Part shown: positions 12,820-64,000 of the stretch, one piece after another
How positions within the stretch are numbered: position 1 is the stretch's first letter
Layout: every line of letters starts with the position of its first letter
From: Onthophagus taurus
Taxonomy: Eukaryota; Arthropoda; Insecta; Coleoptera; Scarabaeidae
DNA length: 64,000 nt
Assembly (NCBI RefSeq): GCF_036711975.1
Contig: NW_027248941.1
Coordinates: 806,001-870,000, forward strand
Direction: 5' to 3'
Notes under the pieces: model-generated
Told to the model about the DNA's origin: nothing
Database searches by the model: none
The model's input: only the letters and a program-made list of their open reading frames with translations
Program-made: the position numbers and the translations under genes

Positions 12820-15420
12820 TGTAGTTTTAAGTAATTTCCGCCGTAAGATGGCGCTAATTAACATTTAATTTATTTAAAAAAGCTTTTTTTTATGTTATTG
12901 TGACTAATACAGAAGGTAAATTGAGTTTTCTTAAGGCTAAAATTACTGATAAAACTCCATTTTATAAATATTTTTAATAAAAATTAATTAAATTAGGGTC
13001 TTATGTAATTTTCGCCGTAAGATGGCGCTGATTGACATTTAATTTATTTAAAAAAGCTTTTTTATGTTATTGTAACTAATAAAGAAGATAAATTAAGTTT
13101 TCTTAAGGCTAAAATTACTGATAAAACTCCATTTTATAAATATTTTTAATTATTATTATTAAAAATTAATTAAATTATGTACTTACGTAATTTCCGCCGT
13201 AAGATGGCGCTGATTAACATTAATTTATTTAAAAAAAGCTTTTAATAAAACCATTTTATTAATAATTATTTTTATTAATCTCATAAACCCACACCGTATC
13301 AATCCCACTCCCAATAATCCTTTTCGGTTTCAAACTCACCAAAGGAAACCTACAAGCGATAATAAAACAACCATCTCCGCATTCATTTCTAATTTTTTCT
13401 TCCAACATTCCCATCTAAAAACGAAATAAACAATTAATAAGCACTTAATTCATCTTGATATTAAGTAACCATCTCCTCAACACCAAAAATAACCACGTTT
13501 TCGTACTTTCCAATATCAAATTTCCACAAATCTTTACAAAAAAAATTCGTTTTCGCCCTTAAACCCCTCCGAAACGAATCGATTTGAGAATAAACCACCA
13601 ACCAAGGATTTAATTCAACCCCGTGCGAGATAAAATCGTTTTTAGCAGCCTCAATCACAATCCGACCATCTCCAGAACCTAAATCGATAAGATTTCCTCT
13701 TCGTCCTTTAAGCGCTTTTAAAACGTTCGTTATTTGGTGGGTTGTGGCTGGTACGTACGGTAAACACACTTTTCTTAAGGCTGGAATTACGAAGGGGGCG
13801 CATAAAATCGTTAATCCGGTTGCTACTCCTCCTTAAAAAAATTTATTAATAAATCTAACCTAAAAGTGAGGTTATGTTTGTTAATACCTGTTATTGCGAT
13901 AAATATTTTCCCCGTTTTTGAAATTGATGCGCTTTTTGGTGAGTTTGATTCGAAATTATCTTCGAAATTCATAATTAATTAGAATATTGTTTAAATTAAA
14001 TCGAAAATTAATTAAATTGAGTGTCTTATGTAATAAGTTATTATTTTCGCCGTAAGATGGCGCTGATTAAAATTAATTTATTTAAAAAAGTTTTTTTTAT
14101 ATTATTGTGGGTAATATTTAAGATAAATAAAGTTGTCTTAAGGCTAAAATTCCATTTTATAAATATTATTAATAGATGTAACCCAAAACTTAAGAAAATT
14201 AATTAAATTGGTGTCTTATGTAATTTTTGCCGTAGATGGCGCTGATTAAGATTAATTGGTCCAAAAAAGATTTTAATAAAAACATTTTATTCCTAATCGC
14301 TTTTATTAATCTTTCTCTTTTATTAAAACGTTTCGAAATTTTCTTGGAAATTCGTAATTTATTAGAAAATTGTTTAAATTAATTAAATTTAGGGTCTTAT
14401 GTAATAAATTATTATTTTCGCCGTAAGATGGCGCTGATTATCATTAATTTATTTAAAAATAGCTTCTTTTATGTCATTGTGGCTAATACTTAAGGTAAAT
14501 AAAGTTCTCTTAAGGCTAAAATTCTATTTTATAAATATTATTAATAAATGTAACACAAAAGTTAAGAAAATTATCTAAATTGGGGTCTTATGTCATTTTC
14601 GCCGTAAGATGGCGCTGATTAGCATTAATTTATTTAAAAAAGCTTTTAATAAAGACATTTTATTCCTAACCGCTTTTATTAATCTCTCTCTTTTATTAAA
14701 ACGTTTCGAAATTTTCTTGGAAATTCATAATTAATTAGAAAATTGTTTAAATTACTTAAATTGAGGGTCTTATGTAATAAGTTATTATTTTCGCCGTAAG
14801 ATGGCGCTGATTAACAATTAATTTATTTATAAAAAGCTTCTTTTACGTTATTGTGGGTAATATTTAAGGCAAATAATGTTTTATTAAGGCTAAAATTCCA
14901 TTTTATAAATATTATTAATAAATGTAACCCAAAAGTTAAGAAAATTAATTAAATTGGTGTCTTATGTCATTTTCGCCGTAAGATGGCGCTGATTAGCATT
15001 AATTTATTTAAAAAAGCTTTTAATAAAGACATTTTATTCCTAATCGCTTTTATTAATTTTTCTTTTATTAAAGCGTTTCAAAATTTTCTTGGAAGTTCAT
15101 AATTAATTAGAAAATTGTTTAAATTAATTAAATTGAGGGTCTTATGTAATAAGTTATTGTTTTCGCCGTAAGATGGCGCTGATTAATAATTAATTTATTA
15201 AAAAAAAAGCTTTTTTTATGTTATTGTGGCTAATATTTAAGGTAAATAAAGTTTTCTTAAGGCTAAAATTCCATTTTATAAATATTATTAATAAATGTAA
15301 CCCAAAAGTTAAGAAAGTTAATTAAATTGAGGTCTTATGTAATTTTCGCCGTAAGATGGCGCTGAAAATCATTAATTTATTTAAAAAATCTTTTTTTTAT
15401 GTTATTGTGATTAATTTTAT
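12820..15420. repeat. Satellite with CGCCGTAAGATGGCGCTGAT core, ~186-bp monomer, ~372-bp dimer
   Basis: Eleven copies of the core, near 12845, 13020, 13202, 14054, 14234, 14424, 14605, 14798, 14979, 15169 and 15352. From 14054 on, odd and even copies alternate with a ~372-base period, so the array is a two-monomer higher-order repeat. The methyltransferase gene (13259-13972) sits inside the array. One monomer type includes a decayed piece of that gene's exon 1 and 5' flank (CGTTTCGAAATTTTCTTGGA). Confidence 0.92.
13259..13972 (-). CDS. ATP synthase c-subunit lysine N-methyltransferase (FAM173 family)
   Basis: Three exons on the minus strand: 13972-13888, 13831-13470 and 13414-13259; 200 residues. 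A short N-terminus is followed by a hydrophobic segment (about residues 25-45, [19 protein letters not shown]) and a class-I SAM-binding core with motif [17 protein letters not shown]. The motif IFGVEEMMGMLEEK spans the exon 2/3 junction and the tail holds IACRFP and GIDTVWVYE, all typical of FAM173A/B. Family members are membrane-anchored in mitochondria and methylate a lysine of ATP synthase subunit c or of the ADP/ATP carrier. The exon 2 donor (GTTACT) is weak but gives an exact family match. Whether it is the A or B type is not resolved. Confidence 0.9.
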
Positions 15421-17639: not shown

Positions 17640-19060
17640 TCCTAATTGGAGTACATTCTGATGATGAATTTTATTTTTTTTATAATTTTTAGAAATTAAT
17701 GAGTCAATTTGTTTAAAATAAAAGATTTTTTGTGATAATAATCTTATTTTTTGGTTTTTATATTAATGTAATTACGATTTATTAATGTTTTTAATTAAAA
17801 TATTTTAAAAATTATTTTTTTTTAATAGATGGCGTCATAAATGATGATTTTTTTTTATTTTTTAATAATTAATGACTCAATTTTTTTAAATAAAAATTAA
17901 TTTTGTAATAAAAATCTTATTTTTCGGTTTTTATATTAATTTAATTCCAATTAATTAACGTTTTTAATTAAAAATTTAATCTATTAATTTTTTAATAGAT
18001 GGCGCCATAACATTTGTTGACAACTTGTTATAAATGATTAATTTTTTTTTTAATTTTTAGTAATTAATGACTCAATTTCTTTAAATTAAAAGCTTTTTTG
18101 TAATGATAATCTTATTTTTCGGTTTTTATATTAATTAATTCCAATTAATTATGGGTTTTGATTAAAATTATTAAAAAATAAATTTATTATTTTTTTTAAT
18201 AGATGGCGCTATTAAATTTATTGACAACTTGTCATGAATGATGAATTTTATTTTTTTTTAATTTTTAGTAATTAATGACTCAATTTCTTTAAATTAAAAC
18301 TTATTTTGTGATAAAAATCTCATTTTTCCGTTTTTATATTAATTTAATTCCGATTAATTAAGATTTTTAATTAATAAAATTAATTTATTATTTTTTTAAT
18401 AGATGGCGCCATTAAATTTATTGACAACTTGTCATGAATGATGAATTTTATTTTTTTTTAATTTTTAGAAATTAATGACTCAATTTCTTTAAATTAAAAG
18501 CTTTTTTGTGATGATAATCTTATTTTACGGTTTTTATATTAATTAATTCCAATTAATTATGGTTTTTGATTAAAATTATTAAAAAATAAAATTATTATTT
18601 TTTTTAATAGATGGCGCTATTAAATTTATTGACAACTTGTCATGAATGATTAAATTTATTTTTTAATTTTTAGTAATTAATGACTCAATTTCATTAAATT
18701 AAAACTTATTTCATGATAATAATCTTATTTTTCGGTTTTTAATTATTTCAATTCCGATTAATTAATATTTTTAATGAAAATAATCAAAAAATTAATCTAT
18801 TATTTTTTTTCAATAGATGGCGCCATAACATTTAAAGACAACTTGTCATAAATGATTAATTTTATTTTTTAGAAATTAATGACTCAATTTCATTAAATTA
18901 AAACTTATTTTGTGATAATAATCTTATTTTTCGGTTTTTATATTAATTAATTCCGATTAATCAATATTTATAATTAAAATAATTAAAAAGATTAATTTCT
19001 TAATTTTTTTAATAGATGGCGCCATAAAATTTATTGACAACTTGTCATTTTTAACCAAAT
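17640..19060. repeat. Satellite with AATAGATGGCGCCATAA core, ~203-bp unit, 7 copies
   Basis: Cores start near 17827, 17997, 18201, 18401, 18609, 18814 and 19013, all in one orientation. Each core is followed by TTATTGACAACTTGTCAT or a variant. The unit also holds AATTAATGACTCAATTTC. Lies between the head-to-head Tre1-like and TACO1 genes. Confidence 0.92.
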
Positions 19061-20620: not shown

Positions 20621-20659
20621 GTTGATATAAAAGAAATTAATAAATTTAAATATGAAGGG

Positions 20660-25680: not shown

Positions 25681-25689
25681 GAAAAATAA

Positions 25690-26060: not shown

Positions 26061-26162
26061 TAATTTTTACTTCCTCGAAAATGAAAAGTAGGAAAAATAT
26101 TTAGGGAGTAATTTGGCGGGAAATATGAATTAAATATACCTCGTAATATCAAACTAAAGTCC

Positions 26163-28665: not shown

Positions 28666-31600
28666 CTAAAGCGAACCGGGCGGGAAGCTTGTCGAACTAT
28701 TCGAATGGGCCAAACTGAGCATTGAGCCTGAAAGGCTACGATCATCCTCGTCGTATTTCTCCCTCGTTCCTTCAGCAATAGCTAACGCACTAAAATTAAA
28801 TTAATTAAATCATTTTTAATCGTTATTTAATCCAAAATTTAACTCACCTAAATCCTAACCTAGCCGATTCATCATCAAACGTTTCGATTTCCCTCGAATG
28901 CTTATCGTTCAACAACCGTATCCTTTCAGCTCTTTCCTCCAAGAACCGGTGCATCTCCGAGTTCATTTTTTGATCCAAAAGGGCACGTCGCGTATCCACC
29001 CTTTGTTCCAACTCGGCTCTTTCGCGATTACGCTGCGCTTGAGCGTGCATTTTATTTTTGCTTTGATAAGCGGTTAAACTATCCAGCTCGTAATGCAATC
29101 GATCTTTTAATTGTTGTTGTTCGTGTTCTTGACTTTCGTCCAATTTCAAGCTTTGCTTCTGCAACATTTCAATAATACTTTGCTCGTATTGGTCGCCTAA
29201 AAGCGCCAATTTTCTTCGTTGCTCCTCCTTTAACTTTTTGATAACCCCTTTTTGGTCTTCCTTGGCGGTCGTCGCCAAAATATGCGCCTTCAACGCTTTG
29301 TATTGTTTCGTTTGAACTTTGCAAGTGTCGCGGAATTGTTTTCGAACCAACATTTCTTTTTGTTTTAACGATTTCGGTTGCTGTTTTAGTTCGAGGGCGT
29401 GTTTTTTTCGCAATTCTCGCTCAGCTCGTTTCATGTACTCCTCTTGGTTGGCGAGTTCCGTGTCGTGTTGACTTTTGATTTGCTCGTCGCGTAACGTGTG
29501 CACCGCTTTTTGTTGTTTGTATTCAAGTTCTTGGGTTTTCTCGTGGTGTTTTAGCAGCATATCGTGAGCTTGCTCGAGTTGACTGTGACGTTTGTTCAGT
29601 TCTTCGCGTAGCAGTTCTTGCTCGAGCGAGTGATAAACAAGAAGCTTTTTTCGTTTGTACTTTCGCACTTCTAGGTCGAGGTATTCGCGTTGACCGCATA
29701 ATAAACGTTGTTCATCTTGGGCATCGACCAATTTTAAATTTTCTTTTTGGGATCTACAACAAAATTTATTAATTAAAATCAACATAATATGTGTAAAGTG
29801 GCGCCATCTCTTAGTTGATTGTAATATAACCTTAATTATTTTTGATTAAAAAAACGTCGATTACGTTTAAAAAAGATATCCAACCTCAAAAGTAAGTCTA
29901 AAATCTCTCAATTTAGTAAATAATTAAAATTAAAAATATTTTATAATTATTTTAAAATTAAAAATTAAATAATTCTAATTATCACGGTACTAAAGTGGCG
30001 CCATCTCTTAAATGACATTTAGTACGTTTTCTGTAATCAAAATAAAATTTATTAATTTTGCTTCAAAAAATGTCTTAATCAGTAACGAAATAACCACAAA
30101 ACGTTTTTTATACCCTTTATTCTTTAACTTTATCGGTTAAAAGTGTCACGAAAAAATAATTTAAATCTTTTCATGGATAATAAGTTGGTTGGGACATAAC
30201 CTTACTCTTTTTTGATGAATAAAACGTCGATTACGTTTAAAAAAGATATCCAACCTCAAAAGTAAGTCTAAAATCTCTCAATTTAGTAAATAATTAAAAT
30301 TAAAAATATTTTATAATGATTTTAAAATTAAAAATTAAATAATTCTAATTATCACGGTACTAAAGTGGCGCCATCTCTTAAATGACATTTAGTACGTTTT
30401 CTGTAATCAAAATAAAATTTATTAATTTTGCTTCAAAAAATGTCTTAATCAGTAACGAAATAACCACAAAACGTTTTTTATACCCTTTATTCTTTAACTT
30501 TATCGGTTAAAAGTGTCACGAAAAAATAATTTAAATCTTTTCATGGATAATAAGTTGGTTGGGACATAACCTTACTCTTTTTTGATGAAAAAAACGTCGA
30601 TTACGTTTAAAAAAAATATCAAACATCAAAAGTAAGTTTAAAATCTTTCAATTTAGTAAATAATTAAAATTAAAAACGTTTTATAATGATTTTAAAATTA
30701 AAAATTAAATAATTCTAATTGTCACGGTATTAAAGTGGCGCCATCTCTTAAATGACATTTAGTATTGTACGTTTTCTATAATCAAAATAAAATTTATTAA
30801 TTTTGCTTCAAAAAATGTCTTAATCAGCAACGAAATAACCACAAAACGTTTCTTATACCCCTTATTCATTAACTTTATCGTTTAAAAGTGTCACGAAAAA
30901 GTAATTTAATTTTTTTCTTGGATAATAAGTTATTTGGGACATAACCTTACTCTTTTTTGATGAAAAAAACGTCGATTACGTTTAAAAAAAATATCCAACA
31001 TCAAAAGTAAGTTTAAAATCTTTCAATTTAGTAAATAATTAAAATTAAAAACGTTTTATAATGATTTTAAAATTAAAAATTAAATAATTCTAATTGTCAC
31101 GGTACTAAAGTGGCGCCATCTCTTAAATGACATTTAGTATTGTACGTTTTCTATAATCAAAATAAATTTATTAATTTTGCTTCAAAAAATGTCTTAATCA
31201 GCAACGAAATAACCACAAAACGTTTGTTATATCCCTTATTCTTTAACTTTATCGTTTAAAAGTGTCACGAAAAAATAATTTAATTTTTTTCATGGATAAT
31301 AAGTTGGTTGGGACATAACCTTACTCTTTATTGATGAAGAAAACGTTGATTACGTTTAAAAAAGATATCCAACATCAAAAGTAAGTCTAAAATCTCTCAA
31401 TTTAGTAAATAATTAAAATTAAAAACGTTTTATAATGATTTTAAAATTAAAAATTAAATAATTCTAATTGTCACGGTGTTAAAGTGGCGCCATCTCTTAA
31501 ATGACATTTAGTATTGTACGTTTTCTATAATCAAAACAAAATTTATTAATTTTGCTTCAAAAAATGTCTTAATCAGCAACGAAATAACCACAAAACGTTT

Positions 31601-34600
31601 ATTATACCCCTTATTCTTTAAATTTATCGTTTAAAAGTGTCACGAAAAAGTAATTTAATTTTTTTCATGGATAATAAGTTGGTTGGGATATAACCTTACT
31701 CTTTTTTGATGAAGAAAAACGTCGATTACGTTTAAAAAAGATATCCAACATCAAAAGTAAGTCTAAAATCTCTCAATTTAGTAAATAATTAAAATTAAAA
31801 ACGTTTTATAATGATTTTAAAATTAAAAATTAAATAATTCTAATTGTCACGGTATTAAAGTGGCGCCATCTCTTATCCGACATTTAGTATTGTACGTTTT
31901 CTATAATCAAAATAAAATTGATTAATTTTGCTTCAAAAAAAGTCTTAATCAGCAACGAAATAACCACAAAACGTTTATTATAACCCTTATTCTTTAAATT
32001 TATCGTTTAAAAGTGTCACGAAAAACTAATTTAAATTTTTTCATGGATAACATATTGGTTGGGACATAACCTTACTCTTTTATGATGAAGAAAACGTCGA
32101 TTACGTTTAAAAAAGATATCCAACATCAAAAGTAAGTCTAAAATCTCTCAATTTAGTAAATAATTAAAATTAAAAACAATTTATAATGATTTTAAAATTA
32201 AAAATTAAATAATTCTAATTGTCACGGTATTAAAGTGGCGCCATCTCTTAAATGACACTTAGTATTATACGCTTTCTATAATCAAAATAAAATCTATTAA
32301 TTTTGCTTCAAAAAATGTCTTAATCAGTAACGAAATAACCACAAAACGTTTGTTATACCCCATATTCTTTAAATTTATCGTTTAAAAGTGTCACGAAAAA
32401 ATAGTTTAATTTTTTTCATGGATAATAAGTTGGTTGGGACATAACCTCAATCTTTTTTGATGAAAAAAACATCGATTGCATTTAAAAAAGATATCCAACA
32501 TCAAAAGTAAGTCTAAAATCTCTCAATTTAGTAAATAATTAAAATTAAAAACAATTTATAATAATTTTAAAATTAAAAATTAAATAATTCTAATTATCAC
32601 GGTGTTAAAGTGGCGCCATCTCTTAAATGACATTTAGTATTGTACGTTTTCTATAATCAAAATAAATTTATTAATTTTGCTTCAAAAAATGTCTTAATCA
32701 GCAACGAAATAACCACAAAACGTTTATTATACCCCTTATTCATTAACTTTATCGTTTAAAAGTGTCACGAAAAAATAATTTAAATCTTTTCATGGATAAT
32801 AAGTTGTTTGGGACATAACCTTACTCTTTATTGATGAAGAAAACGTCGATTACGTTTAAAAAAGATATCCAACATCAAAAGTAAGTCTAAAATCTCTCAA
32901 TTTAGTAAATAATTAAAATTAAAAACGTTTTGTAATGATTTTAAAATTAAAAATTAAATAATTCTAATTATCACGGTGTTAAAGTGGCGCCATCTCTTAA
33001 ATGACATTTAGTATTGTTCGTTTTCTATAATCAAAATAAAATTGATTAATTTTGCTTCAAAAAATGTCTTAATCAGCAACGAAATAACCACAAAACGTTT
33101 GTTATACCCCTTATTCTTTAACTTTATCGTTTAAAAGTGTCACGAAAAAATAATTTAAATTTTTTCATGGATAATAAGTTGGTTGGGACATAACCTTACT
33201 CTTTTTTGATGAAGAAAACGTCGATTACGTTTAAAAAACATATCCAACATCAAAAGTAACTCTAAAATCTCTCAATTTAGTAAATAATTAAAATTAAAAA
33301 CGTTTTATAATGATTTTAAAATTAAAAATTAAATAATTTTAATTGTCACGGTATTAAAGTGGCGCCATCTCTTAAATGACACTTAGTATTATACGTTTTC
33401 TATAATCAAAATAAAATCTATTAATTTTGCTTCAAAAAAGTCTTAATCAGCAACGAAATAACCACAAAACGTTTGTTATACCTCATATTCTTTAACTTTA
33501 TCGTTTAAAAGACTCACGAAAAAGTAATTTAAATTTTTTCATGGATAATAAGTTGGTTGGGACATAACCTTACTCTTTTTTGATGAAGAAAACGTCGATT
33601 ACGTTTAAAAACGATATCCAACCTCAAAAGTAAGTCTAAAATCTCTCAATTTAGTAAATAATTAAAATTAAAAGCGTTTTATAATGATTTTAAAATTAAA
33701 AATTAAATAATTCTAATTGTCACGGTATTAAAGTGGCGCCATCTCTTAAATGACACTTAGTATTATACGTTTTCTATAATAAAAATAAAATTTATTAATT
33801 TTGCTTCAAAAAATGTCTTAATCAGCAACGAAATAACCACAAAACGTTTGTTATACCCCTTATTCTTTAAATTTATCGTTTAAAAGTGTCACGAAAAAAT
33901 AAAAATAAATTGGTTGGGACATAACCTTACTCTTTTTTGATGTAGAAAACCTCGATTACTTTTAAAAAAGATATCCAACATGAAAAGTAATTCTAAAATC
34001 CCTCAATTTAGTAAATAATTAAAATCAAAAACAATATTTAATGATTTTAAAATTAGATAATTCTAATTGTTACTGTTTTAATGTGGCGCCATCTCTTAGT
34101 TGACATTTAGTATTTTTGCAGCTTTCTGTAGGCAAGTTATTTATTAATTTTACTTCAAAAAGTGTCTTAATCCCCAAAAAAGGTTTGTTATTTAATTATT
34201 TATGAATATTATAACTTACTGTAAAGTAGCATCCTTTTGTTTTTTCGGTGTTGAATCATCCTGAGACAACTCCCTTTTCCACCTTTCCTTGTTCGCCTTA
34301 TAATCCTTTTTGCGTTGATTCTCAAACAATTTCCGATCCATTTCTTGCCTTCCGGCGATATCCTTAATTAATTTTTTCTCCCCTAAAGTATTCTGTTTCT
34401 GCCTCCGTTCTAATTCTTGTTGATGTTTCGTCTGTAACCGTTCCAATTCCCTGCTGAATTGTTGCAGCAACGTCTCGTACTCCTTATCTAACTGAGCCTT
34501 ATGATTCTCCATCTCCATTTTGCAGCGCTCCTCCAATTTCAAAAGTGCGCTTTGATGCTCTCTACGCATCCGTTTATAACCGGACATCTGTTCGTGCATT

Positions 34601-41893: not shown

Positions 41894-41919
41894 TTTTTAT
41901 GTTTCGTGTTATGTTGTTG

Positions 41920-42580: not shown

Positions 42581-42639
42581 GATTCATTTTCTTTATTACG
42601 AATTATTGATAACGAAACATAAAATACCTAAGAGAATGA

Positions 42640-43379: not shown

Positions 43380-43860
43380 AATATTAAGCTGAAAAGCTCG
43401 AGGAGAGCTTTAATTTGGAAATATTAAAAGCTTACCTTTATTAATAGAAAATTATCTTCCCAATATAATCGGTTAATATACTCCAGGATTAGCTTCCAAA
43501 GTAAATTGGGACACTGAAAAAGAATGTTTTGAATCATTAGACACTTTTTACGCAGAGTTGTATAACGAAGAAATTATTGAGGGGAGCAAAGAATGTTTTA
43601 CATCCCGATATTAAAAAATCCTTTTTGCCACAAAAAAATTTTACTATAAATACTATACCATGACTTACCGAGTTTCTGTAATGCTTTTAAGAGGTGTTAA
43701 TCCCATATTCTTCTTCATTTTTGTGTTAAAACGTTTAGTTGAGTTGAGAAATAAAAGTGAGGTTATGTTGGATTGTTTGTATTTGAATCTTGTCAAAAAT
43801 TTCGCCAACCTAAAGAAAACAAAAAAAAATTTAATTTTATTCATTTTTAAATAAATTAAA
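43380..43860 (+). pseudogene. Upstream decayed copy of the Mlh1 last exon
   Basis: Matches the gene's 3' end at 46190-46700: AAAAGCTTACCTTTATTAAT, AATTATCTTCC, TTGGGACACTGAAAAAGAAT, GAGTTGTATAACGAAGAAAT and GACTTACCGAGTTT. The match continues through the gene's 3' flank (GTGAGGTTATGTTG and CCAACCTAAAGAAAA). Stop codons and deletions break the frame. Lies before the Mlh1 start codon. Confidence 0.9.
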
Positions 43861-43984
43861 TAAATAATTTATTAATTACATTAAGTTTATAATAAATAAA
43901 TTAAAAAATAACTTTAATTATAACACAAGTAAGTTTTTAAATAAAAAAATTTAGGTTATGTTTACCTTTTTTAGGTTATTCTGT

Positions 43985-44235
43985 AAAGGGAATTATCACA
44001 AAAAGTTGTCGAAATATTAAGCTTTAATTTGGAAGTGTTAAAAGCTTACCTTTATTTATAGAAAATTATCTTTGCAATTTGATCCATTTACCGGTTTATA
44101 CTCTACGATTACCTTCAGAAAAATAATTTGGACACTGAAAATTCATTCAAAGATAAAAGTAAGGTTATGTTGGATTGTTTGTATTTGAATCTTGTCAAAA
44201 GTTCCGCCAACCTAAAGAAAACAAAAAAAAAATTT
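43985..44235 (+). pseudogene. Second upstream Mlh1 last-exon fragment
   Basis: Shorter copy of the same block (AAAGCTTACCTTTATTTATA, AAATTATCTTTGC, CCGGTTTATACTC) plus the gene's 3' flank. Frame broken. Confidence 0.85.
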
Positions 44236-44428
44236 TATTTTATTAATATTTAAATAAATTAAATATATAATTTATTAATTACATTAAGTTTATAATAATT
44301 AAATTAAAAAATGACATTAATTATAACACAAATAAGTTTTTAAATAAGAAAAAGAGATTAAAAAAAAAATTTGAGGTTATGTTTACTTTTTTAGGTTATA
44401 TTTACCGTTTAGGTTAACTTAATAATTA

Positions 44429-46576
44429 ATGAAGAAAATGAATCAAGCACCAAAAATACTTAAATTAAACGAAACCGTAATAAATAAAATCGCCGCGGGT
44501 GAAGTAATTCAACGCCCGGCGAATGCGTTAAAAGAGATGATCGAAAACTCCTTGGATGCTAAATCAACAAATATCCAAATAATCGTCAAAAACGGCGGGT
44601 TAAAACTACTCCAAATCCAAGATAACGGATGCGGGATACGAAAAGAAGACTTTGAAATCGTTTGCGAGAGATTTACAACGTCGAAATTAAAGGAATTCGA
44701 GGATTTGGGAAAAATAGCTACGTTTGGGTTCCGCGGCGAAGCTTTAGCCAGTATTTCCCACGTTGCGCATCTCACGATCATTTCTAAAACGATTTCGGAT
44801 AAATGCGCTTATAAGTAATGAGATGATTTCGATTTTATTTGGAAATAATCAAAAATTTTAGGGCTTCGTACGAAGATGGGAAAATAAAAAGTGGCCCCAT
44901 TCCTTTCGCAGCGACTCAAGGAACACAAATTATCGTCGAGGATCTATTTTATAACATGAATGTGAGAAAGAGGGCTTTAAGGAGCCCATCTGAAGAGTAT
45001 AATAAAGTTTTTGAGGTTGTTTCGAGATACGCAATCCATAATAATCATGTTGGTGAGGTTATGTTTGGTCTAAAAAGTTTTAATTTAATTAAAAATGTTT
45101 GTAATTATAGGATTTGGGCTAAAAAAGCACGGCGAAACGAACGATATAAAAACATCGCTAAATTCGACGAAAATAGATAATATTCGATTAATTTTTGGGG
45201 CGGAAATTGCAAAAGAATTGGTTGAGGTTATGTTGGAGAACGAAACTTATCGCTTTAAAGTTAGTGGATGCGTAACTAACCCGAATTATTCAACGAAGAA
45301 ATTTATCTTTTTATTGTTTATTAATAACCGCTTGGTGGAGTGTCAAAGTTTAAAGCGATCAATCGATCAAGTTTATGCAACATATCTCCCAAAGAATTCG
45401 CACCCCTTCGTTTATTTAAGTTTAGAACTTGACCCCGCGTCTGTAGATGTTAATGTGCACCCAACTAAACATGAAGTACACTTTTTTAATGAAGATCAAA
45501 TCATTGAGTTAATAATAACATCGCTTGAAACGAAATTATTGGGTTCAAATAATTCCCGGACGTTCTATACAACCGGAAAATTACCTAAAATAACTTTAAA
45601 AAGTGAAGATAAAACTTTGTATCAAAAAGAATTTGTTCGAACTGACACAAACGAGCAAAAATTAACAAAATTTTTTGGTCCCACATCAACAGGGAAAGAA
45701 AAATCTCCCATTAAAACGACAAAATTGGTAGATACGAGTTTATCAGAAGACGTTTTTGATAGATTTAATAAAGATTTTATAAAAAGAACCGAAAGTTTAG
45801 AAAAAGAAACGAAAAAAGATCATCATTTATCGAAAATATCCCGAATCGAAATAAAATTAACGAGCGTTTTGGAACTTCAAAAAGAAATCGAATCGAATTC
45901 GCATAAAAATTTAAGGGAGTTATTCGCGCAACACGTTTTTGTTGGATCGATTAACCCAAAACAAAGTTTAATCCAATACAACACAAAACTTTTTTTGTGT
46001 AACACAAAAAAGATATTGCAAGAACTTTTTTATCAATACATCATGTATAATTTCCAAAATTTCGATAAAATCACCTTGACAAATCCTTTACCAATTTACG
46101 ATTTATGTTTGTTAGCTCTCGATTTATCCGAAGTTGGTTGGACCCCCGAAGACGGCGATAAAACCGAATTATCTCAAAAAGTCGTCGAAATATTATCAGA
46201 TAAAGCTGAAATGCTCGACGAATATTTTTCGATGGAAATTGAAGACGGAAAAATTAAAAGCTTACCTTTATTAATTGAAAATTATCTTCCTGATATGATC
46301 GGCTTACCGGTTTATATCTTGCGATTAGCCTCCGAGGTTAATTGGGAAACTGAAAAAGATTGTTTTAAATCATTCGCGATTGAAACGGCGGCTTTTTACT
46401 CGGAGTTGTATAGCGAAGAAATTAATGAAGGGAGTAATTGGAGGTGGGTGACGGAACATGTTTTATATCCAGCTATTAAAAAATTCTTTTTACCACCAAA
46501 AAATTTTACCGAAAATGCTAGTGTGTTACAAATTGCAGACTTACCGAGTTTGTATAAAGTTTTTGAGAGGTGTTAA
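44429..46576 (+). CDS. MLH1 DNA mismatch-repair protein (MutL alpha subunit)
   Basis: Three exons: 44429-44814, 44862-45052 and 45111-46576; 680 residues. The N-terminal GHKL ATPase has [20 protein letters not shown] (about 21-40), DNGCGI and [12 protein letters not shown]. The transducer domain ends with [17 protein letters not shown]. The long last exon includes the C-terminal dimerisation domain and ends in FERC, the conserved MLH1 terminus. It partners with PMS2/PMS1 to process mismatches in the nucleus. Length is close to fly Mlh1 (about 660). The donor of intron 2 lies inside a copy of the dispersed word GTGAGGTTATGTT. An in-frame ATG four codons in (44438) is an alternative start. The last exon is the source of decayed copies on both sides. 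Confidence 0.95.
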
Positions 46577-46819
46577 TCTTATTTTCTTCTTCATTTTTGT
46601 ATTAAAACGTTTAATTAAGTTATTGAGAAATAAAAGTGAGGTTATGTTGATTTGTTTGTATTTGAAACTTGTGTCAAAAATTCTGCCAACCTAAAGAAAA
46701 TAAAAAAAATTAATTTTTAAATAAATTAATTAAATAATTTATTAATTACTTTAAATTTATAATTAATAAATTAAAAATTTATTAATTATAAATTTAAAAG
46801 TTAAAAAAAAAAGTTGAGG

Positions 46820-49490
46820 TTATGTTATTTTTATCACAAAAAGTTGTTGAAATATTAATTACTGTTAATATTAGATCGACTTACCAGTTTATTCTCTACC
46901 ATTAGCTTCTGAACTAAATTGGGAAACTGAAAAATAACGTTTTGAATCATCACTTTTTACCCACAAAAAGTTTAATTGATTTAATCAGGAATAGAAGTGA
47001 GGTTATGTTGATTTGTTTGTATTTGAATCTTGTCAAAAATTCTGCCAACCTAAAGAAAATAAAAAAAATATTTAATTTTTAAGTAAATTAATTAAACAAT
47101 TTATTTATAAAATGTTTATAATTAATAAATTAAAAATTAATTTTAATTATAACACATTAATAAAAAAAAAGATTAAAAAAAATTTTGAGGTTATGTTATT
47201 TTTATTACAAAAAGTTGTCGAAATATTAACGAAAATGCTCGCGGAACGCTTTAATTTGGAAATATTAAAAGCTTACCTTTATTTATAGAAAATTATCTTC
47301 TCGATATGATCAGTTTACCAGTTTATACTCTACGATTAGCTTCCAAAGTAAATTGGAAAACTGAAAAATAACGTTTTGAATCATCAAACACTTTTTATCA
47401 TTACATTATTAATCATTACTTGACTTACCGAGTTTCTATAATGTTTCTAAAAGGTGTTAATCCCAATTTCTTCTTCATTTTTGGCTACAAAAAGCTTAAT
47501 TGATTTAATCAGGAATAGAAGTGAGGTTATGTTGATTTGTTTGTATTTGAATCTTGTCAAAAATTCCGCCAACCTAAAGAAAATAAAAAAAATATTTAAT
47601 TTTTAAATAAATTAATTAAACAATTTATTTAATTAATTTATTTATAAAATATTTATAATTAATAAATTAACAATTAATTTTAATTATAACACATTAATAA
47701 AAAAAAAGATTAAAAAAAATTTTGAGGTTATGTTATTTTTATTACAAAAAGTTGTCGAAATATTAACTGAAATGCTCGCGGAACGCTTTAATTTGGAAAT
47801 ATTAAAAGCTTACCTTTATTTATAGAAAATTATCTTCTCAATATGATCAGTTTACCAGTTTATATTCTACGACTAGCTTCCAAAGTAAATTGGGAAACTG
47901 AAAAATAACGTTTTGAATCATCAGATTCATCAGACACTTTTTATCATTACATTATTAATCATTACTTGACGAGAAGAGGTGTTAATCCCAATTTCTTCTT
48001 CATTTTTGGCCACAAAAAGCTTAATTGATTTAATCAGGAATAGAAGTGAGGTTATGTTGGTTTGTTTGTATTTGAATCTTGTCAAAAATTCCGCCAACCT
48101 AAAGAAAATAAAAAAAATATTTAATTTTTAAATAAATTAATTAAACAATTTAATTAATTAATTTATTTATAAAATATTTATAATTAATAAATTAAAAATT
48201 AATTTTAATTATAACACATTAATAAAAAAAAAGATTTAAAAAAATTTTGAGGTTGTTATTTTTATTACAAAAAGTTGTCGAAATATTAACTGAAATGCTC
48301 GCGGAACGCTTTTATTTGGAAATATTAAAAGCTTACCTTTATTTATAGAAAATTATCTTCTCAATATGATCAGTTTACCAGTTTATATTCTACGACTAGC
48401 TTCCAAAGTAAATTGGGAAACTGAAAAATAACGTTTTGAATCATCAGATTCATCAGACACTTTTTATCATTACATTATTAATCATTACTTGACGAGAAGA
48501 GGTGTTAATCCCAATTTCTTCTTCATTTTTGGCCACAAAAAGCTTAATTGATTTAATCAGGAATAGAAGTGAGGTTATGTTGATTTGTTTGTATTTGAAA
48601 CTTGTGTCAAAAATTCTGCCAACCTAAAGAAAATAAAAAAAAATTAATTTTTAATAATTTTTAAATAAATTAATTAAATAATTTCATTAATTAATATAAC
48701 ACAAACAAGTTTTAAAAAAAAGTTGGGGTTATGTTATTTTTATCACAAAAAGTTGTTGAAATATTAATTACTGTTAATATTAGATCGACTTACCAGTTTA
48801 TTCTCTACCATTAGCTTCTGAACTAAATTGGGAAACTGAAAAATAACGTTTTCGATCATCACTTTTTACCCACAAAAAGTTTAATTGATTTAATCAGGAA
48901 TAGAAGTGAGGTTATGTTGATTTGTTTGTATTTGAATCTTGTCAAAAATTGCGCCAACCTAAAGAAAATAAAAAAAATTTTATTTTATTAATTTTTAAAT
49001 AAATTAATTAAATAATTTATTAATTACATTCAATTTTAATTAATAAATTAAAATGTAACATTAATTATAACATAACACAAGTAAATTTTTAAATAAGAAA
49101 ACATGATTTAAAGAAAATATGAGGTTATGTTTACTTTTTAGGTTATATTTACCAAAAAAATTCTTTATATTAACCGTCGAAAACTTGAATTATCACGAAG
49201 TAGTAGAAATAATAACAGAAAAAGGTGAAAAATTTAAAGTGGAAATATTAAAAGCTTACCTTTATTAATAGAAAATTATCTTCTGGCTATACTTGGCTTA
49301 CCAGTCTATTTATATCATAAGATTAGTTTCCAAAGGTAATTGAAAAAGTTACAAATAAGTTTTTGAAAGGTGTTTTGTTCATAAAAAGCTTAATTGATTT
49401 AATAAGAAATAAAAGTGAGGTTATGTTGAATTGTTTGTATTTGAAACTTGTCAAAACATCCGCCAACCTAAAGAAAATAAAATTATTTAG
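46820..49490 (+). pseudogene. Array of at least six decayed Mlh1 last-exon copies
   Basis: Copies at about 46840-47050, 47210-47590, 47745-48110, 48265-48625, 48740-48965 and 49165-49480, each with fragments such as AAAAGCTTACCTTTATTTAT and AAATTATCTTC plus the same 3' flank (GTGAGGTTATGTTGATTTGT, CCAACCTAAAGAAAATAAAA). The three at 47210-48625 resemble each other most, with a ~530-base unit, so part of the spread is by tandem duplication after decay. All have stops. A remnant of the flank reaches 49800-49865. Confidence 0.9.
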
Positions 49491-50473
49491 TAATTAATTT
49501 TAGTTTTCTTATTAATAAATAATTTTGTATTTTATGCAAAGTACTATAAAAAGGAGAATAATTATTACCTCAACATTAATCAGTGACTTCGAGCTTGTCT
49601 CTACACCATTATAGAAAGTATCTTTTTAATGTGGTACCTGTTGAATGTGATTACTGTTTTAAATCAATAAATTTTTCACAATAAATCACTTTAGTTCTCC
49701 TTCTAGTTCATTCTTGTTCCTTTTGATGGTTTATGTCACCAATATCTTGCCGATATAATTCTTTTCCATAGATTTTTACTCAATTAATTTCCTCCTGGTA
49801 AAAGAGGTTATGTTGCTTTGTTTGTATTCGAATTTGTCAGAATGAACACCAACCTAAAAATAAAAAATTATTTACTTTATGAATCAAATTATTTTTTTAG
49901 TATTAGTAAAAATTAATTAGATTAAAAATGAATTAAAGTTAAGATTATTAAAAATAAATTAATTAAATCGAGTTAGTACAGCATCATCTATCGTGATTCC
50001 CCAAAACTAAATTTTGACAGATTCCTAACCTCCAATTCAAATTTGTACTAAAAATGTTTATTGTTAATTAAAATAAGAATTTAAATTAATGCAAAAAAAG
50101 AATGTTAAGTAAAAATTTATAACCTAGAATCGGTATCTAAGGTGGTTTTCATTTGTCGTTAAAAATCATTACGGCTGTTGATTTTTTTGAAAAGACACGA
50201 GTCAAAAGACAAAAAAAAATTTGCCGTGTGTGTCAAAAAGAAAACGGTCTTAATTAATTGATTGTAACGATTTCTAAAAAAAAAAAAACTGCAAATTTCG
50301 ATCGCCCTTAAAACCCAAAAAAAAAAATCTCAACCTAACCAAAAAGAAAGAAAAAAAATCTTAAAAGAAATAATTAATCTACCCCACGAAGATGACCCAT
50401 ACATGAGCGAAAGGCTGTGGTCCCTCGCTAATAGGGCTTCAGAGGGCTCTGCGCATGTCTTTGGCTAACAAAT
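49491..50473. other. Intergenic; eIF4H promoter in its right part
   Basis: No gene seen. A flank remnant of the Mlh1 repeat lies near 49800. From about 50390 the DNA becomes GC-richer (GGCTGTGGTCCCTCGCTAAT), probably the eIF4H promoter and 5' UTR, just before the ATG at 50474. Confidence 0.5.
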
Positions 50474-52439: not shown

Positions 52440-53830
52440 TTTGACATGATGAGAAGTTAGTTATAAACATATTTTTTCCAACAGATGGCGTTATCTCCTA
52501 AGTGTCTTTTTCAAATAACATTTTTTGACGTTTCATTAAAATATAATGAATTTAGTTCATTTTGCGTTAGAAATAAAACTAAAACTAGAAATTTTGAGAT
52601 CCAACTCAATGTTTTAGCGCCCGGGGGCGGCCGATGTCTTCGAAAACGGCCGTGTTGGTTTAAAGCTGTGCTAGAAAATGATGTTAATAATTTCTAATCT
52701 CTTTATCAACACAACCCAACCTCACTTTTTCAAATGATATTTTTGTGACGTTTCTTTAATTACATCTTCAATCTACTCTACGTTTCTTCAATCAAATAGT
52801 AATTCGCGATTTTCGTGGTTTAAATTAAGCTAAAATATTTGACATGACGAGAAGTTAGTTATAAACGTACTTTTTCCAACAGATGGCGCTATCTCCTATG
52901 CGTCTTTTTCAAGTGACATTTTTTGACGTTTCATTAAAGAAAATGTATTTAACTCATTTTGAGTTAGAAAATGGTTAGAAATAAAACTAAAACTGGTACA
53001 ACACCGAATATCTTTATCCTCCCGAGTATAAACAAAGTAGATATTGTGTCGAATTTAAATACGTCATAATGTAAGGTTATGTTTTCATTAGTCGCTGTTG
53101 TGAATACCATTTGTTGTTTCCTGTCTTAAGCCATAAAACTAAAAAGAAGTACGCCTCATAAAAGTTCGTTTTACTTACTCGTACACGTTTTGCGTTATAA
53201 AAGAAGAAATCAATTAATAATTTGCTTTTTTTGTGGTTTTAAATTACGTTATGTTTTTTTTTCAACAGATGGCGTCTTTTTCAGATCAAATTTATTTTAA
53301 ATTTTGCTTTAGAAATGAAACTAAAACTAGAATAATTACATAACTTCAAAATTTCTAGTTTTAGTTTTATTTCTAATACAAAATTAAATCAAATTTTCTT
53401 TAATGAAACGTCAAAAAATGACTCTTGGAAAAGAGGTTAGGTTGGTTTGAAAAAGTGAGGTTGGGACAAACATTGGGGACGAATATAAGATAGATAACAA
53501 ACAAAATTAACATTTCCCAGCGCAGTTTTAAACTGACACGGCCGTTTTCGAACACATCGGCCGCCCCCGAGAGCACGAAATGTTGATTTTCACAAATACG
53601 GGTAGATATCAAAGCTTGATTTCAATGTCTTAACGTTCGCGATGGCCGGGGGCGGCCGATGTCTTCGAAAACGGCCGTGTTAGTTTAAAATTGCTAGAAA
53701 ATGATGTCGAGGATTACTAATCTCACTTTGCAAACACAACCTAACCTCACTTTTTCAAATGACATATTTTGACTTTTATTTTAGACTTTTTTTCAACAGA
53801 TGGCGCTATCTCCTATGCATCTTTGACGCA
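52440..53830. repeat. Interspersed repeats with AACAGATGGCGCTATCTCC and a GC-rich block
   Basis: Cores AACAGATGGCG at about 52480, 52878, 53264 and 53795, each followed by TTTTGACGTTTCATTAAA-like or related sequence. A GC-rich word, GGGGGCGGCCGATGTCTTCG followed by AAAACGGCCGTGTT, is at 52624 and 53646 (+), and an inverted version is at 53538-53575. 53340-53610 is an inverted copy of part of 52500-52670. Short open frames across it are not genes. Confidence 0.82.
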
Positions 53831-54829
53831 CGACATAACCCGAAAATTTCTAGTTTTAGTTTTATTTCTTATTATATCGGCAGAAAAGTCTACGAAAATT
53901 TTGCACTTATCTTAACTTCTAGGTTATGTTGTAGGTCTCTATTGGATTGCAAAGTCCCTCTTAGGAATGGACAGGAATTTGGAAAGCTTCGGTTCGGATA
54001 ATTATTCTTTAATCGGTCTTCTTTGGATCTGGTGTTTATTTTTGATGTTTAAATTTAATTTTTCTTCTTTTTAGGTTATATAAAATCTTGATTCGGCGTT
54101 AAATTTGAATTGAATTATCGGAGAACCAATTTAAGGTTAGGAAATTATTTTTTGACATTTATAGGTTAGATTTCTTGCTCGTACTAAATTGGACTTTTTC
54201 TTGGTTCAACTTTTCCTCTTCTTATATACCCTTTTCTCCTTCTCCAGAAAATTTTCTTCCTTCTATTTTTAACCCGCACTTCTGATTGGTTGATGGAAAT
54301 AAATTCAAATCTTCCTAAATTCCGAAAACGCCATCTATCGGATTTCTTTCGAACTACCCAAAAATTCAAAAACTTATTCTATTCATATCTTCTTCAATTT
54401 TTCACTAATCTAGATGAAACTTGGTATTTGATGCACACATTTTTCTATTTCAGCTGTCCATTGGAGATTTCAAGATTCTCTTACCACAAAAGAAGTTTGA
54501 ATTTTACAAATTCAAATCCAATTTTCAAGGTTAAAATCGTTCAAAATCTTCCAAAATCTAATGAATTAGATGTAGCTGACACTGATCTTCCCGTTTTGGA
54601 TGGTTTAGAAAGGATATTATTAGTTTTGAGAAAATTATAAGCAAATAAAAATTAACTGTCAACTGAATTGAGGTTATGTTTCTCTCTCTCAAGTAAAACT
54701 TGTCTGGGAAGCTATATTACAATATAATTAACTAATCCAGTAAAATCTGGGGTTAGAAAAACTTTTAAATCCTCTACGAATTTTTTTAATCATCCAAACA
54801 TACAAAATCATCACAACGCCCCTTTTTTT
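53831..54829. other. Intergenic between convergent eIF4H and PGAM5
   Basis: No gene I can support. A 116-codon plus frame (54290-54640) overlaps a minus frame and resembles nothing I know; its ending LPVLDGLERILLVLRKL is not low-complexity, so a decayed gene cannot be excluded. The last part (from about 54780) is the PGAM5 3' end. Confidence 0.45.
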
Positions 54830-61500: not shown

Positions 61501-64000
61501 TCTATCAATTGACGTTTTGTCGCCAACCTCACGCGAATACTTCATGTCATTAAATTTTAGTTGTAATTTTTTTAAATAACTTTTTTTACAAATTTACAAC
61601 AATTAAGTAACTTATAATTGATTTTTCCATATTTGTATCAAAAAAAAGTAAAAATACAAAAATTTGGTTACTTTTTAAATTTATTAAATTAATAAATTTA
61701 AAAAGTAACTAAATTTTTAGGGATTTTTATTTTTTTAAAATTTATTACTTTAAAAAAAAGTGACAGATTTAACATAACCACTAAAATTAATTTATTAACA
61801 TTTCTTTTTATTTCTAGATACGGTAGAAGACAAAGTCACGTTTTAAGAGAAAAATTAAGGGAACAACAACAATTATCACAACCACCAATCGAAACTGTCG
61901 ACTCAAACGCAAATAAAACAACCAACGTTGCTTCTACAACCACAACGGACACAATTCAACCCTCTTCGAGTCGATGCAGCGAACGATCGAATAAATCCAC
62001 GGCTACGAATGCCACAAATACGACGGATAACGACCCACTTTATTGTAAAGTTAATGATGATTTAACAAAATCGTTAACTCCAACAGGTCCTGATTCGTTA
62101 GGATTGGCAAGTCAAAGTAGTTTTGGGAAAGGTTCAACCGGTCATAATTCCTTTGGAAAAGCATCAATTGGTTGTGGTTCCTCCTACAGTCCCGTTTTAT
62201 CCGTTGGAAGTAAAAATGGCACTTTAAAACGGAATAAAACGGCGACTACTCCAACAAGTCCCACTCCATCATCAAACGCGGACTCTCAATTAGACTTTTT
62301 GTTGAAAAGTTTAGCAAAAGAGACTCTTAGTGGAATACAAAGAGATGAATCGAGGAATGAAACTAATAAATTAGAAGGTAAATTAATCGATTTAGTTAAG
62401 TATTTAATCGCTTTAAACGCATGCTGCAATTGTAATAATTGTTTTAGATTCAGAAGTAGAAGTGATAACGAAATCAATGCCTGCCGAATTGCCGAATAAC
62501 ATTACTAAACTTTGTAACACAGTAGCTAAACCTCTACCTCCCGGACAAGTAAAATGTAATATCTTAAAAGGTAGTTATTTACGCTTTTTGTAACTTAAAT
62601 AATAAATTATTTTTCTTGTTGTAGCGAAAATTGAAGAAGAATTAAACCAACAATTAGCTCCCCCGACGAAGTTAACCAATCAGATGTTTGTTGCAGCTGC
62701 AAAAGAAGACGAAACTAATTTAAATTCTTTAAACGCGGCTACATTCGTTTCTGTGGTGAGTTTAATTTTGTTGAAATCGATTTGTTGACGTTTTTCATTT
62801 TCATTATTTGTGGGGGCTTCCGCTTTTTTATATTTTTCACAGGGTGGTGATAAATTAACTTTAGCTGTAACCGGTCCCACAAGTACCAATCCGATAGTAA
62901 CTAATTCCCCGACCCGAGAAACACCACCAACGACCGAAAATCACCTTCAATTAATCAACCAATCGAATAACAACAATAACCAACAAAAACGTTGCACCAC
63001 CCCGGTTACCGTAACGTTTTTCGGTCACTCCGATCGTGGAAAATTGGAAAAAGTTATGATCTCCAGCCCGGAAATTAAAAACAAACAACAACCTTTAAGT
63101 TTATTATCAACCAACGGCGATGAGAAAGACTCGAATGGAATCGATAGTTTATTTAATTCGTTGAATTTCATCGATAACTCGATCACGCGGAAAGAATCCA
63201 ATTCGAATCCTTTTTTTAATCTATCCGGGGATAACGAAAACTGTAAGAATCCATTTCAAGAGAGTCATAATCCGTTTTTATCGGGGAATAATCCGTTTCG
63301 CGATGATTCGGATGGATTGGTTGAAAACGGTGGTGGGGAAAGGGAGGAAAATGGAAAGAAAGAGGTGAGATCGGCTTATTTGTTGCTTTTATTTCGCTGA
63401 ATTTGTGACGTTTTTCATTTTAATTCATTATAAATTAGTTTTTAAAATTAAATTAGACTGTTTAAGTGGCGCCATCTTTTAGCGAAACTTAATATTGATT
63501 TGTGTTTATATTTTTAACAAATTTTCTTTTTTTTTATTTAAATAACAATATATTAGGTAAAAATCACTTCGTAAATGCGTTATTTATCTTTTAAAATGTT
63601 AACAAAGTTATTAAAATTTAATTTTCGTAATTTTAATTTCTTAAAGTGGCGCCATCTTTTGGTGAAACTTTTTGTATTGTTTATTTCTCCAACGAATTTT
63701 TTCTTAAAAAAACGATATTTTATCTAAAAAAAAACAATTTAATCGATTCATAAACGCGTTATTTATGTTTTAAAGTGTTAACAAAGTTTTTTTTACAAAA
63801 TTAATTCGCGTTAAAAAGTTTCGTAAATACATAACCTAACATTTTTGATTTGAGTTATTTAAATTTTGTGTAGAATTAATTATTTAGGTTTATTAGTATT
63901 TATTACTAATAAAGGTATTTATGTTTTATTCAAATTAATTTAAATAATTTTTTTTAGGATGTAAAGCCATCGATAATTACCGTAAAACTTGAAAAATCGT
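58553..64000 (+). CDS. Yurt / EPB41L5-type FERM protein, 3' end outside window
   Basis: Eleven exons seen: 58553-58696, 58943-59090, 59153-59329, 59387-59595, 59649-59839, 59895-60110, 61818-62377, 62448-62570, 62625-62755, 62843-63364 and 63958-64000 (open); about 821 codons, all junctions in frame. The FERM domain spans about 30-330: [49 protein letters not shown] and [15 protein letters not shown]-adjacent segment follows ([24 protein letters not shown]). The rest is Ser/Thr/Asn-rich and disordered, with four NPF tripeptides in exon 10. Yurt limits apical Crumbs activity and acts at lateral membranes and septate junctions in insect epithelia; EPB41L5/4B are the vertebrate counterparts. Intron 6 (1.7 kb) is satellite. 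Confidence 0.93.
60112..61690. repeat. ~196-bp satellite in Yurt intron 6, about 8 units
   Basis: Landmark TCAATTGACGTTTTGTCGCC, with variants, recurs near 60330, 60527, 60725, 60920, 61117, 61310 and 61508, with AACCTCACGCGAATACTTCA and TTGCAACAATTAAGTAACTT in each unit. The first, most diverged unit begins directly at the splice donor. Confidence 0.93.
63455..63690. repeat. Two-copy repeat with AAGTGGCGCCATCTTTT in Yurt intron 10
   Basis: Cores near 63463 and 63644, each followed by GGTGAAACTT or AGCGAAACTT. The words AACGCGTTATTTATGTTTTA and GTTAACAAAG also recur on a ~180-base spacing. Confidence 0.82.

What the first reader, a model, noticed from the sequence alone, without database searches (positions are those of the whole stretch)
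12820..63690. One 9-mer, AGATGGCGC, is embedded once per unit in five unrelated satellite families
By eye I count 34 exact copies of AGATGGCGC on one strand or the other: 11 in 12.8-15.4 kb, 6 (plus one variant) in 17.8-19.0 kb, 13 in the Tao intron at 29.8-34.1 kb, 2 (plus two variants) in 52.4-53.8 kb, and 2 in the Yurt intron. The families share nothing else obvious and have different unit lengths. In AT-rich DNA this GC-rich word should be rare. It fits the recalled CTCF core consensus AGRKGGCRS. Within each array all copies point the same way: plus at 13-19 kb, minus at 30-34 kb, plus at 52-54 kb, minus at 63.5 kb, so the arrays form two facing pairs. Inference: arrays may be clustered insulator-protein sites, or the word may be the shared insertion or amplification signal.
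Basis: partly seen in the sequence, partly recalled or inferred. Interest (0 to 1): 0.85.

Follow-up and report, generated by a model that had tools for sequence, protein, structure and literature searches.

The report
CTCF-like core word in unrelated satellites
Many different AT-rich tandem repeats in this animal genome carry the same nine-letter word once per unit, most likely the core of the binding site of the genome-organising protein CTCF, which would make these repeats ready-made rows of boundary-protein sites.

Summary
The count is right: 34 exact AGATGGCGC (19 plus, 15 minus) against 0.065 expected. Only three of the five "families" are clear tandem arrays; the other two are small, diverged groups. 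The word is in excess genome-wide: 5512 copies against 512 for its backwards control, 4.9 times the mean of its one-mismatch neighbours. It recurs in tandem at 172-202, 262-292 and 352-382 bp in 184, 154 and 152 pairs (control 0, 0, 1), in many unlike sequences; listed pairs concentrate on contigs C3 (beyond 20 Mb), C5 and the window's own C16. CTCF is favoured over YY1/Pho: CC stands at -5/-4 in 726 of 5512 copies (about 145-165 expected), CCACY precedes 109 (about 3 expected), A at -1 is depleted, and the genome encodes an 11-finger CTCF with human-type contacts in fingers 3 and 4. In the window itself only 12 of 34 copies have the CC. Binding, insulation and cause of amplification are untested. 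"Two facing pairs" carries no statistical weight.

The parts
12797..13243 (+). F1, first array, 172-bp unit, AGATGGCGC at 12846, 13020, 13202 (context cgCCGTAAGATGGCGC)
14005..15394 (+). F1, second array, 373-bp double unit (halves 179-192 bp), AGATGGCGC at 14055, 14234, 14426, 14607, 14799, 14981, 15171, 15354; F1 flank identity 0.675 over 11 units, cores identical
17673..19048 (+). F2, ~170-208-bp unit, AGATGGCGC at 17997, 18201, 18401, 18609, 18815, 19014 and AGATGGCGT at 17827
29801..34172 (-).
52483..53921 (+). F4, irregular diverged group, AGATGGCGC at 52881 (CCAAC before it) and 53798 (TCAAC before it), AGATGGCGT at 52483 and 53267; AGGTTATGT at 53074 and 53921 (52257 and 52267 just before)
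63469..63837 (-). F5, AGATGGCGC at 63469 and 63649 and AGGTTATGT at 63829, each 180 bp apart, same sense
43760..49813 (+). Diverged ladder of the second word AGGTTATGT, 18 exact copies, all one sense, of which 45056 and 45225 lie in Mlh1 coding ORFs; 9 of 17 spacings are 169-213 bp, 4 are 324-387 bp; no AGATGGCGC
41892..42584 (-). 172-bp array with one AGGTTATGT per unit (41995, 42166, 42338, 42510)
167..1790 (-). 267-bp array with one AGGTTATGT per unit (295, 573, 838, 1103, 1370, 1637); no AGATGGCGC here

Best explanation
AGATGGCGC is the core of this genome's CTCF site. Many otherwise different AT-rich satellites of one or two nucleosome lengths each hold one such core per unit, and the core tends to stay while the rest of the unit drifts. 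Most likely CTCF (shown: the gene and its core-reading fingers are present; inferred: it binds) occupies the cores and phases nucleosomes around them. Tandem duplication in steps of the nucleosome repeat then copies site plus spacer, and purifying selection or gene conversion keeps the site (inferred). The arrays would be rows of same-facing CTCF sites in introns and between genes, able to act as boundaries or loop anchors (inferred, untested).
For: Genome-wide excess: 5512 copies against 512 backwards control, 4.9 times the mean of 27 one-mismatch neighbours. Extended CTCF context CCASYAGRKGGCRS (consensus seen in a passage of PMC6746451): CC at -5/-4 in 726 of 5512 (backwards pattern 14), about 145-165 expected; of the first 100 listed, R at -3 in 93 and Y at -1 in 77; CCACY in 109 (backwards pattern 2), about 3 expected, 67 distinct places among the 100 listed. 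Sample of 73 flank clusters: the two most informative of 40 flank columns are -5 C (24 of 73, P 8e-5) and -4 C (21 of 73, P 0.0016), third is +1 Y (52 of 73, P 9e-5). CTCF orthologue at G000:C1:27292759-27293526, 53% identity over 252 residues, 11 fingers; contact residues -1, 2, 3, 6 identical to human in fingers 3 and 4, 3 of 4 in finger 5, 2 of 4 in finger 7. Tandem pairs 184, 152 and 154 against 0, 1 and 0. Core identity within units 0.93-1.00 against flank identity 0.53-0.93. Arrays with the full consensus CCACTAGATGGCGC exist: five copies in C5:9617547-9618970 and four in C1:1439201-1440346.
Against: No binding data. In the window CC at -5/-4 is present in 12 of 34 copies only (10 of 11 in F1, 1 of 2 in F4, 1 of 2 in F5, none in F2 and F3); 87% of genomic copies lack it. 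AGATGGCGC is also contained in the YY1 site AAGATGGCGCC used at Peg3; both F5 copies fit that exactly, and 12 of 34 window copies have its A at -1. Part of the genomic excess lies in dispersed repeats: some flank clusters hold 5 to 8 rows from several places on C1. Finger 6 keeps 1 of 4 contacts, as do fingers 1, 8 and 11. Units were chosen by having the word or a one-mismatch form, so its conservation is biased upwards. The R and Y tallies lean on CCAAC (22 of 100), which may be one repeat; among the 29 distinct five-letter words R is 22 and Y 15. Y at -1 over all 73 clusters is weak (42, P 0.09). AGATGGCGG also forms at least one array on C1 (nine copies ~283 bp apart), so tandem form is not unique to this word.
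Confidence: 0.6

Rival explanations
1. The word is a YY1/Pleiohomeotic site (AAGATGGCG[GC]C), and the arrays are Polycomb- or YY1-type clusters like the YY1 site cluster in the Peg3 control region.
For: The YY1 core GGCGCCATCTT (= AAGATGGCGCC) contains the 9-mer and occurs as a cluster in Peg3 (passages of PMC2615030). F1 (10 of 11) and F5 (2 of 2) have A at -1. A C16 array has CCGCCATTTTGG close to its AGATGGCGC. AGATGGCGG is 1539 against 682 for its backwards control.
Against: A at -1 is depleted in the 73 clusters (15, P 0.007). AGATGGCGG, the other YY1 form, is 3.6 times rarer than AGATGGCGC and only 1.4 times the neighbour mean. CC at -5/-4 lies outside the YY1 matrix GCCATNTTN (seen in PMC3799424).
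Confidence: 0.12
2. Common descent: all these satellites come from one ancient satellite or mobile element of ~180-190 bp or its double; the words are what is still recognisable.
For: Two words share register and sense in 5 of 6 groups. F3 and F5 share 14 to 16 letters. Some 270-300-bp arrays on C3 and C5 look related by eye. Listed tandem pairs are concentrated on C3 beyond 20 Mb, C5 and C16.
Against: No flank similarity between window families: of 153 pairs of 18 representatives the median z is 0.06, and all 4 with z above 4 are within a family. The word also occurs in many single, unlike contexts (C1 and window) and on all large contigs. CTCF-type upstream bases are enriched.
Confidence: 0.2
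3. The word is an amplification seed only: a site of fork stalling, breakage or microhomology that starts tandem duplication, with no function of the arrays afterwards.
For: Tandem pairs are about 45 times commoner per copy than for the backwards word (490 against 1). Within the 172-202 range the listed spacings peak at 175-189 bp (68 of 100).
Against: The core stays more alike than its flanks within units (biased set); the genome-wide excess of dispersed copies needs another cause.
Confidence: 0.1

Closest known systems
DXZ4/Dxz4, FIRRE and ICCE tandem repeats of mammalian X chromosomes
   Same: Tandem arrays with a CTCF site in the repeat unit; at DXZ4 the CTCF interval is conserved while the rest of the unit diverges between species (passages of PMC3491370; of PMC6985041).
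   Different: Those are a few X-linked loci, DXZ4 with 3-6 kb units and proven CTCF binding; here there are many unlike families with ~180-380-bp AT-rich units, several in one 64-kb window, and no binding data.
CENP-B box in otherwise unlike centromeric satellites (recalled, not looked up)
   Same: A short protein-binding word kept once per unit in satellites that share little else.
   Different: Different word and protein; these arrays lie in introns and between genes.
Drosophila 1.688 satellite on the X chromosome
   Same: Euchromatic arrays of short satellite units concentrated on one chromosome and linked with dosage compensation (titles and abstract starts; unit lengths recalled).
   Different: 1.688 is one family without a shared CTCF-type word (recalled); whether C3/C5/C16 belong to an X chromosome is unknown.
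YY1 site cluster of the Peg3 control region
   Same: Several copies of AAGATGGCGCC in one region (passages).
   Different: Not a satellite of many families; the flank statistics here favour CTCF.

Membership tests
CTCF binding sites | Core AGRKGGCRS | tested here: met
   AGATGGCGC fits letter for letter; 34 of 34; consensus seen
CTCF binding sites | Upstream CCASY | tested here: inconclusive
   Genome-wide enriched: CC 726 of 5512, CCACY 109; in the window CC at -5/-4 in 12 of 34 (10 of 11 F1, 1 of 2 F4, 1 of 2 F5, none of 6 F2 and 13 F3)
CTCF binding sites | Genome encodes CTCF with conserved core-reading fingers | tested here: met
   53% identity over fingers 3-11; contacts 4 of 4, 4 of 4, 3 of 4 in fingers 3, 4, 5
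CTCF binding sites | Bound by CTCF in vivo | not testable with these tools
   no ChIP or CUT&RUN data
YY1/Pho sites | A at -1 (AAGATGGCG) | tested here: not met
   15 of 73 clusters, background 0.344; but met in 12 of 34 window copies (F1, F5)
YY1/Pho sites | Final G form AGATGGCGG equally enriched | tested here: not met
   1539 against 5512
DXZ4-like CTCF tandem array | One CTCF motif per tandem unit, best conserved part of the unit | tested here: inconclusive
   Core 1.000, 0.968, 1.000, 0.926, 1.000 against flanks 0.675, 0.746, 0.934, 0.529, 0.616 in F1-F5; 2 of 156, 14 of 160, 84 of 361, 11 of 157 and 9 of 147 nine-column windows are as conserved, core included; set chosen by the word
DXZ4-like CTCF tandem array | Boundary or loop anchor in Hi-C | not testable with these tools
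   no Hi-C data

The most novel reading that the evidence does not exclude
Two DNA-binding proteins, CTCF at AGATGGCGC and an unknown one at GTGAGGTTATGTT, lay down a ladder of one site per nucleosome repeat, in one sense, and seed new satellites again and again from unlike DNA. Unrelated satellites then converge on the same words, in one large region or chromosome (C3 beyond 20 Mb, C5, C16), possibly as a chromosome- or region-marking system.
Probability: 0.25. Interest if true: 0.88.

Novelty: new variant of a known kind. Interest (0 to 1): 0.64.

Why it matters
CTCF sites in tandem repeat units are known from some mammalian loci such as DXZ4. A genome in which many unlike nucleosome-length satellites each carry one CTCF core per unit would link satellite birth to chromatin proteins. 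It would also give a natural series of arrays with 2 to 13 same-facing sites, on which insulation and loop direction could be measured against site number in an animal outside mammals.

Tried and rejected
Literature: searches for the word itself (AGATGGCGC, GCGCCATCT) listed 20 of 239 and 15 of 184 papers; by title none treats an insect satellite or insect CTCF, and the one I followed was the Peg3 YY1 paper. Searches for CTCF with beetle (4 of 4 listed), with tandem repeat, satellite and insect (20 of 32 listed) and with mosquito, honeybee and Hi-C (15 of 158 listed) showed, by title and abstract start, no paper on CTCF cores in insect satellites; papers not listed were not seen. The Tribolium low-copy satellite paper does not contain the term CTCF in its held main text (find). 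The Drosophila CTCF paper of 2007 was not held, and in the passages seen of the 2012 one its 9-bp motif is only in a figure, so no fly matrix was run; that fly CTCF prefers AGGTGGCGC is recalled, and that form has 1709 copies here (control 536).

A first within-array alignment failed for F1 and F2 because stretches longer than a unit were used; one search replaced it. Strict nucleosome quantisation was considered and weakened: 262-292-bp spacing gives 154 pairs too, by eye from few families, and only three spacing ranges were searched. 'X chromosome' was considered for C3, C5 and C16 and not adopted: C3 carries its arrays mainly beyond 20 Mb (19 of 26 places), which fits a pericentromeric or low-recombination region as well. 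Facing pairs were rejected as evidence.
Full report
Observation. The window holds 34 exact AGATGGCGC, 19 plus and 15 minus, where a first-order Markov model of the window expects 0.065. Tandem Repeats Finder shows three clear arrays with the word: F1 (12797-13243 and 14005-15394), F2 (17673-19048) and F3 (29826-34172). F4 (52.5-53.8 kb) and F5 (63.5 kb) are small diverged groups. Other window arrays of unit 100 bp or more (167-1790; 2515-5643; 8921-9174; 20674-25671; 39380-40578; 41892-42584; 60120-61676) and the two-copy stretch at 27212-27511 hold no AGATGGCGC, nor does the 21-bp-based array at 35.4-38.4 kb (my reading).

Is it more than chance genome-wide? The window is G000:C16:806001-870000 of a 290.8-Mb genome in 33 contigs. 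The word occurs 5512 times, its backwards control 512 times. Within one mismatch there are 35811 places, so the 27 neighbours average 1122 (same figure for the control 521). AGATGGCGG has 1539 (control 682) and AGGTGGCGC 1709 (control 536). The fully specified CGTAGATGGCGC has 41 places spread over C1, C2, C3, C5, C6, C7, C8, C10, C11, C15 and C16 (5 on C16), so the word is dispersed, though some of these places lie in arrays.

What word is it? I collected 140 sites with 40 bp on both sides (106 rows from fetched loci, all on contig C1, some loci overlapping so that a site can appear twice, plus 34 from the window) and grouped them by flank similarity into 73 clusters, one representative each (sites nearer than 40 bp to a locus end were dropped; a few clusters are visibly related, so 73 overstates independence). 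Of 40 flank columns the three most informative are -5 (C, 24 of 73), -4 (C, 21 of 73) and +1 (C or T, 52 of 73). CC at -5/-4 is what CTCF's CCASYAGRKGGCRS asks for (consensus seen in a passage of PMC6746451). Across the genome CC precedes 726 of 5512 copies where 145-165 are expected from CC frequency in the window and in the 199-kb C1 sample. CCACY precedes 109 where about 3 are expected. A at -1, which YY1 asks for, is depleted (15 of 73, P 0.007). That matters because the YY1 core at Peg3, GGCGCCATCTT, contains the same 9-mer (passages of PMC2615030). Against: in the window only 12 of 34 copies have the CC (10 of 11 F1, 1 of 2 F4, 1 of 2 F5), 12 of 34 have A at -1 (F1, F5), and both F5 copies are perfect matches to the Peg3 YY1 core.

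The protein. Human CTCF fingers 3-11 find one clear orthologue, G000:C1:27292759-27293526, E 8.3e-80, 53% identity; the next locus has 39% over a shorter stretch. Its open frame has 11 C2H2 fingers by pattern. Contacts -1, 2, 3, 6 equal human in fingers 3 and 4, 3 of 4 in finger 5, 1 of 4 in finger 6, 2 of 4 in finger 7. That fingers 3-7 read the core and its CC is recalled.

Arrays genome-wide. Pairs of the word in the same direction: 184 at 172-202 bp (control 0), 154 at 262-292 (control 0), 152 at 352-382 (control 1). From positions the window supplies about 13 of the 184 and 17 of the 152. The tool lists the first 100 of each, in contig order as it appears. The 200 listed pairs form 84 places when merged within 5 kb: C5 35, C3 26 (19 beyond 20 Mb), C1 9, C2 6, others 8. 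The unlisted rest (84 and 52 pairs) lies further down the contig order and was not seen. Contig lengths are C1 44.2, C2 30.8, C3 30.3, C5 14.9, C16 3.2 Mb. In one search the 100 listed are C5 33, C16 32, C3 30, C11 3, C7 1, C15 1, with 54 unlisted. So, as far as listed, the tandem form is strongly concentrated in C3 beyond 20 Mb, C5 and C16, while the single word is spread. The letters that the tool prints after each word differ widely between places, whereas one search is made up, by eye, of a handful of families. As a caution, AGATGGCGG too has a nine-copy array of ~283 bp on C1.

Are the window families related? Ninety bases on each side of 18 representatives of both words were compared in 153 pairs against block-shuffled flanks: median z 0.06; the four pairs above 4 are within F1 (three) and F4 (one); the two F3-F5 pairs reach 2.2 and 1.9. 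Within families the core is at or near full identity. Nine-column windows as conserved as the core (core included) are 2 of 156 (F1), 14 of 160 (F2), 84 of 361 (F3), 11 of 157 (F4), 9 of 147 (F5). Units were picked by the word or a one-mismatch form, so this favours the core; in F3, which is very uniform, the core is not special.

A second word. A scan of window 9-mers with at least five copies and eight-fold excess (787 words) for the number of unlike contexts ranks overlapping words of (G/T)TGAGGTTATGTT first (AGGTTATGT: 58 copies scored, 24 contexts, 0.47 expected); AGATGGCGC is the best word outside that set, seventh overall (34 copies, 8 contexts, 0.07 expected). AGGTTATGT occurs 59 times: at 172 bp in 41.9-42.6 kb; in a looser ladder in 43.8-49.8 kb (9 of 17 spacings 169-213 bp, 4 of 17 324-387 bp; two of its 18 copies are in Mlh1 coding ORFs); and mostly alternating with AGATGGCGC in F3 at 174 and 196-201 bp. 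At F1, F4 and F5 copies lie at 159, 186, 216, 193, 193 and 180 bp from an AGATGGCGC or its T variant, in the same sense; other near copies lie at 123, 343, 506 and 667 bp. Five of six AGATGGCGC groups (not F2) have a same-sense copy at 155-220 bp; 2000 circular shifts of the second word average 0.95 groups, P 0.007; no group has one in the opposite sense. The range was chosen after seeing the distances, so this is exploratory. Genome-wide there are 46 places with AGATGGCGC followed at 172-202 bp by AGGTTATGT (control 0), 19 of them on C16, 10 of those in the window; the chance level is not known because the second word was not counted genome-wide. In the 199-kb C1 sample it has 19 copies.

Mechanism. 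Shown: the word, its excess, its CTCF-type context, the CTCF gene, its one-per-unit tandem form in many places. Inferred: CTCF binds; it phases nucleosomes; duplication proceeds in nucleosome-length steps around bound sites; arrays act as boundaries. The nearest proven relatives are DXZ4 and its like, where the CTCF interval is the conserved part of diverging tandem units (passages of PMC3491370). The difference is the number of unlike families and the short AT-rich units.

Limits. One genome, no relatives, no binding data.

Noticed in passing
window 41995-49813, 30194-33927, 295-1645, 57200-57255, 63829: Second shared word AGGTTATGT (gtgAGGTTATGTT), 59 copies, 24 unlike contexts, often on a ladder of ~170-213 bp and in register with AGATGGCGC; binding protein unknown.
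   Followed up: partly
G000 C6:25983610/25994882, C6:26303388/26314661, C6:27856281/27867749, C8:19318100/19329584, C1:22364331/22375557 and others: CCACCAGATGGCGC often occurs as a minus/plus pair 11-22 kb apart (five at 11.2-11.5 kb), as if in the inverted ends of a large mobile element that carries a near-full CTCF consensus.
   Followed up: no
G000 C1:22138658-22138762 and C1:22285042-22285295: AGATGGCGC at 48-bp (3 copies) and AGGTGGCGC at 49-bp (6 copies) intervals in the same 22-Mb region of C1: short-unit arrays of CTCF-core forms.
   Followed up: no
G000 C16:740250-761001: ~265-285-bp arrays with AGATGGCGC and, 11 bases further on, CCGCCATTTTGG (a YY1/Pho-like site, recalled); their letters resemble the reverse complement of the 167-5643 arrays of the window, which lack AGATGGCGC (by eye).
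   Followed up: partly
window 44429-46576: Mlh1-type mismatch-repair gene (Mlh1_C, E 5e-86), beside the diverged AGGTTATGT ladder.
   Followed up: no
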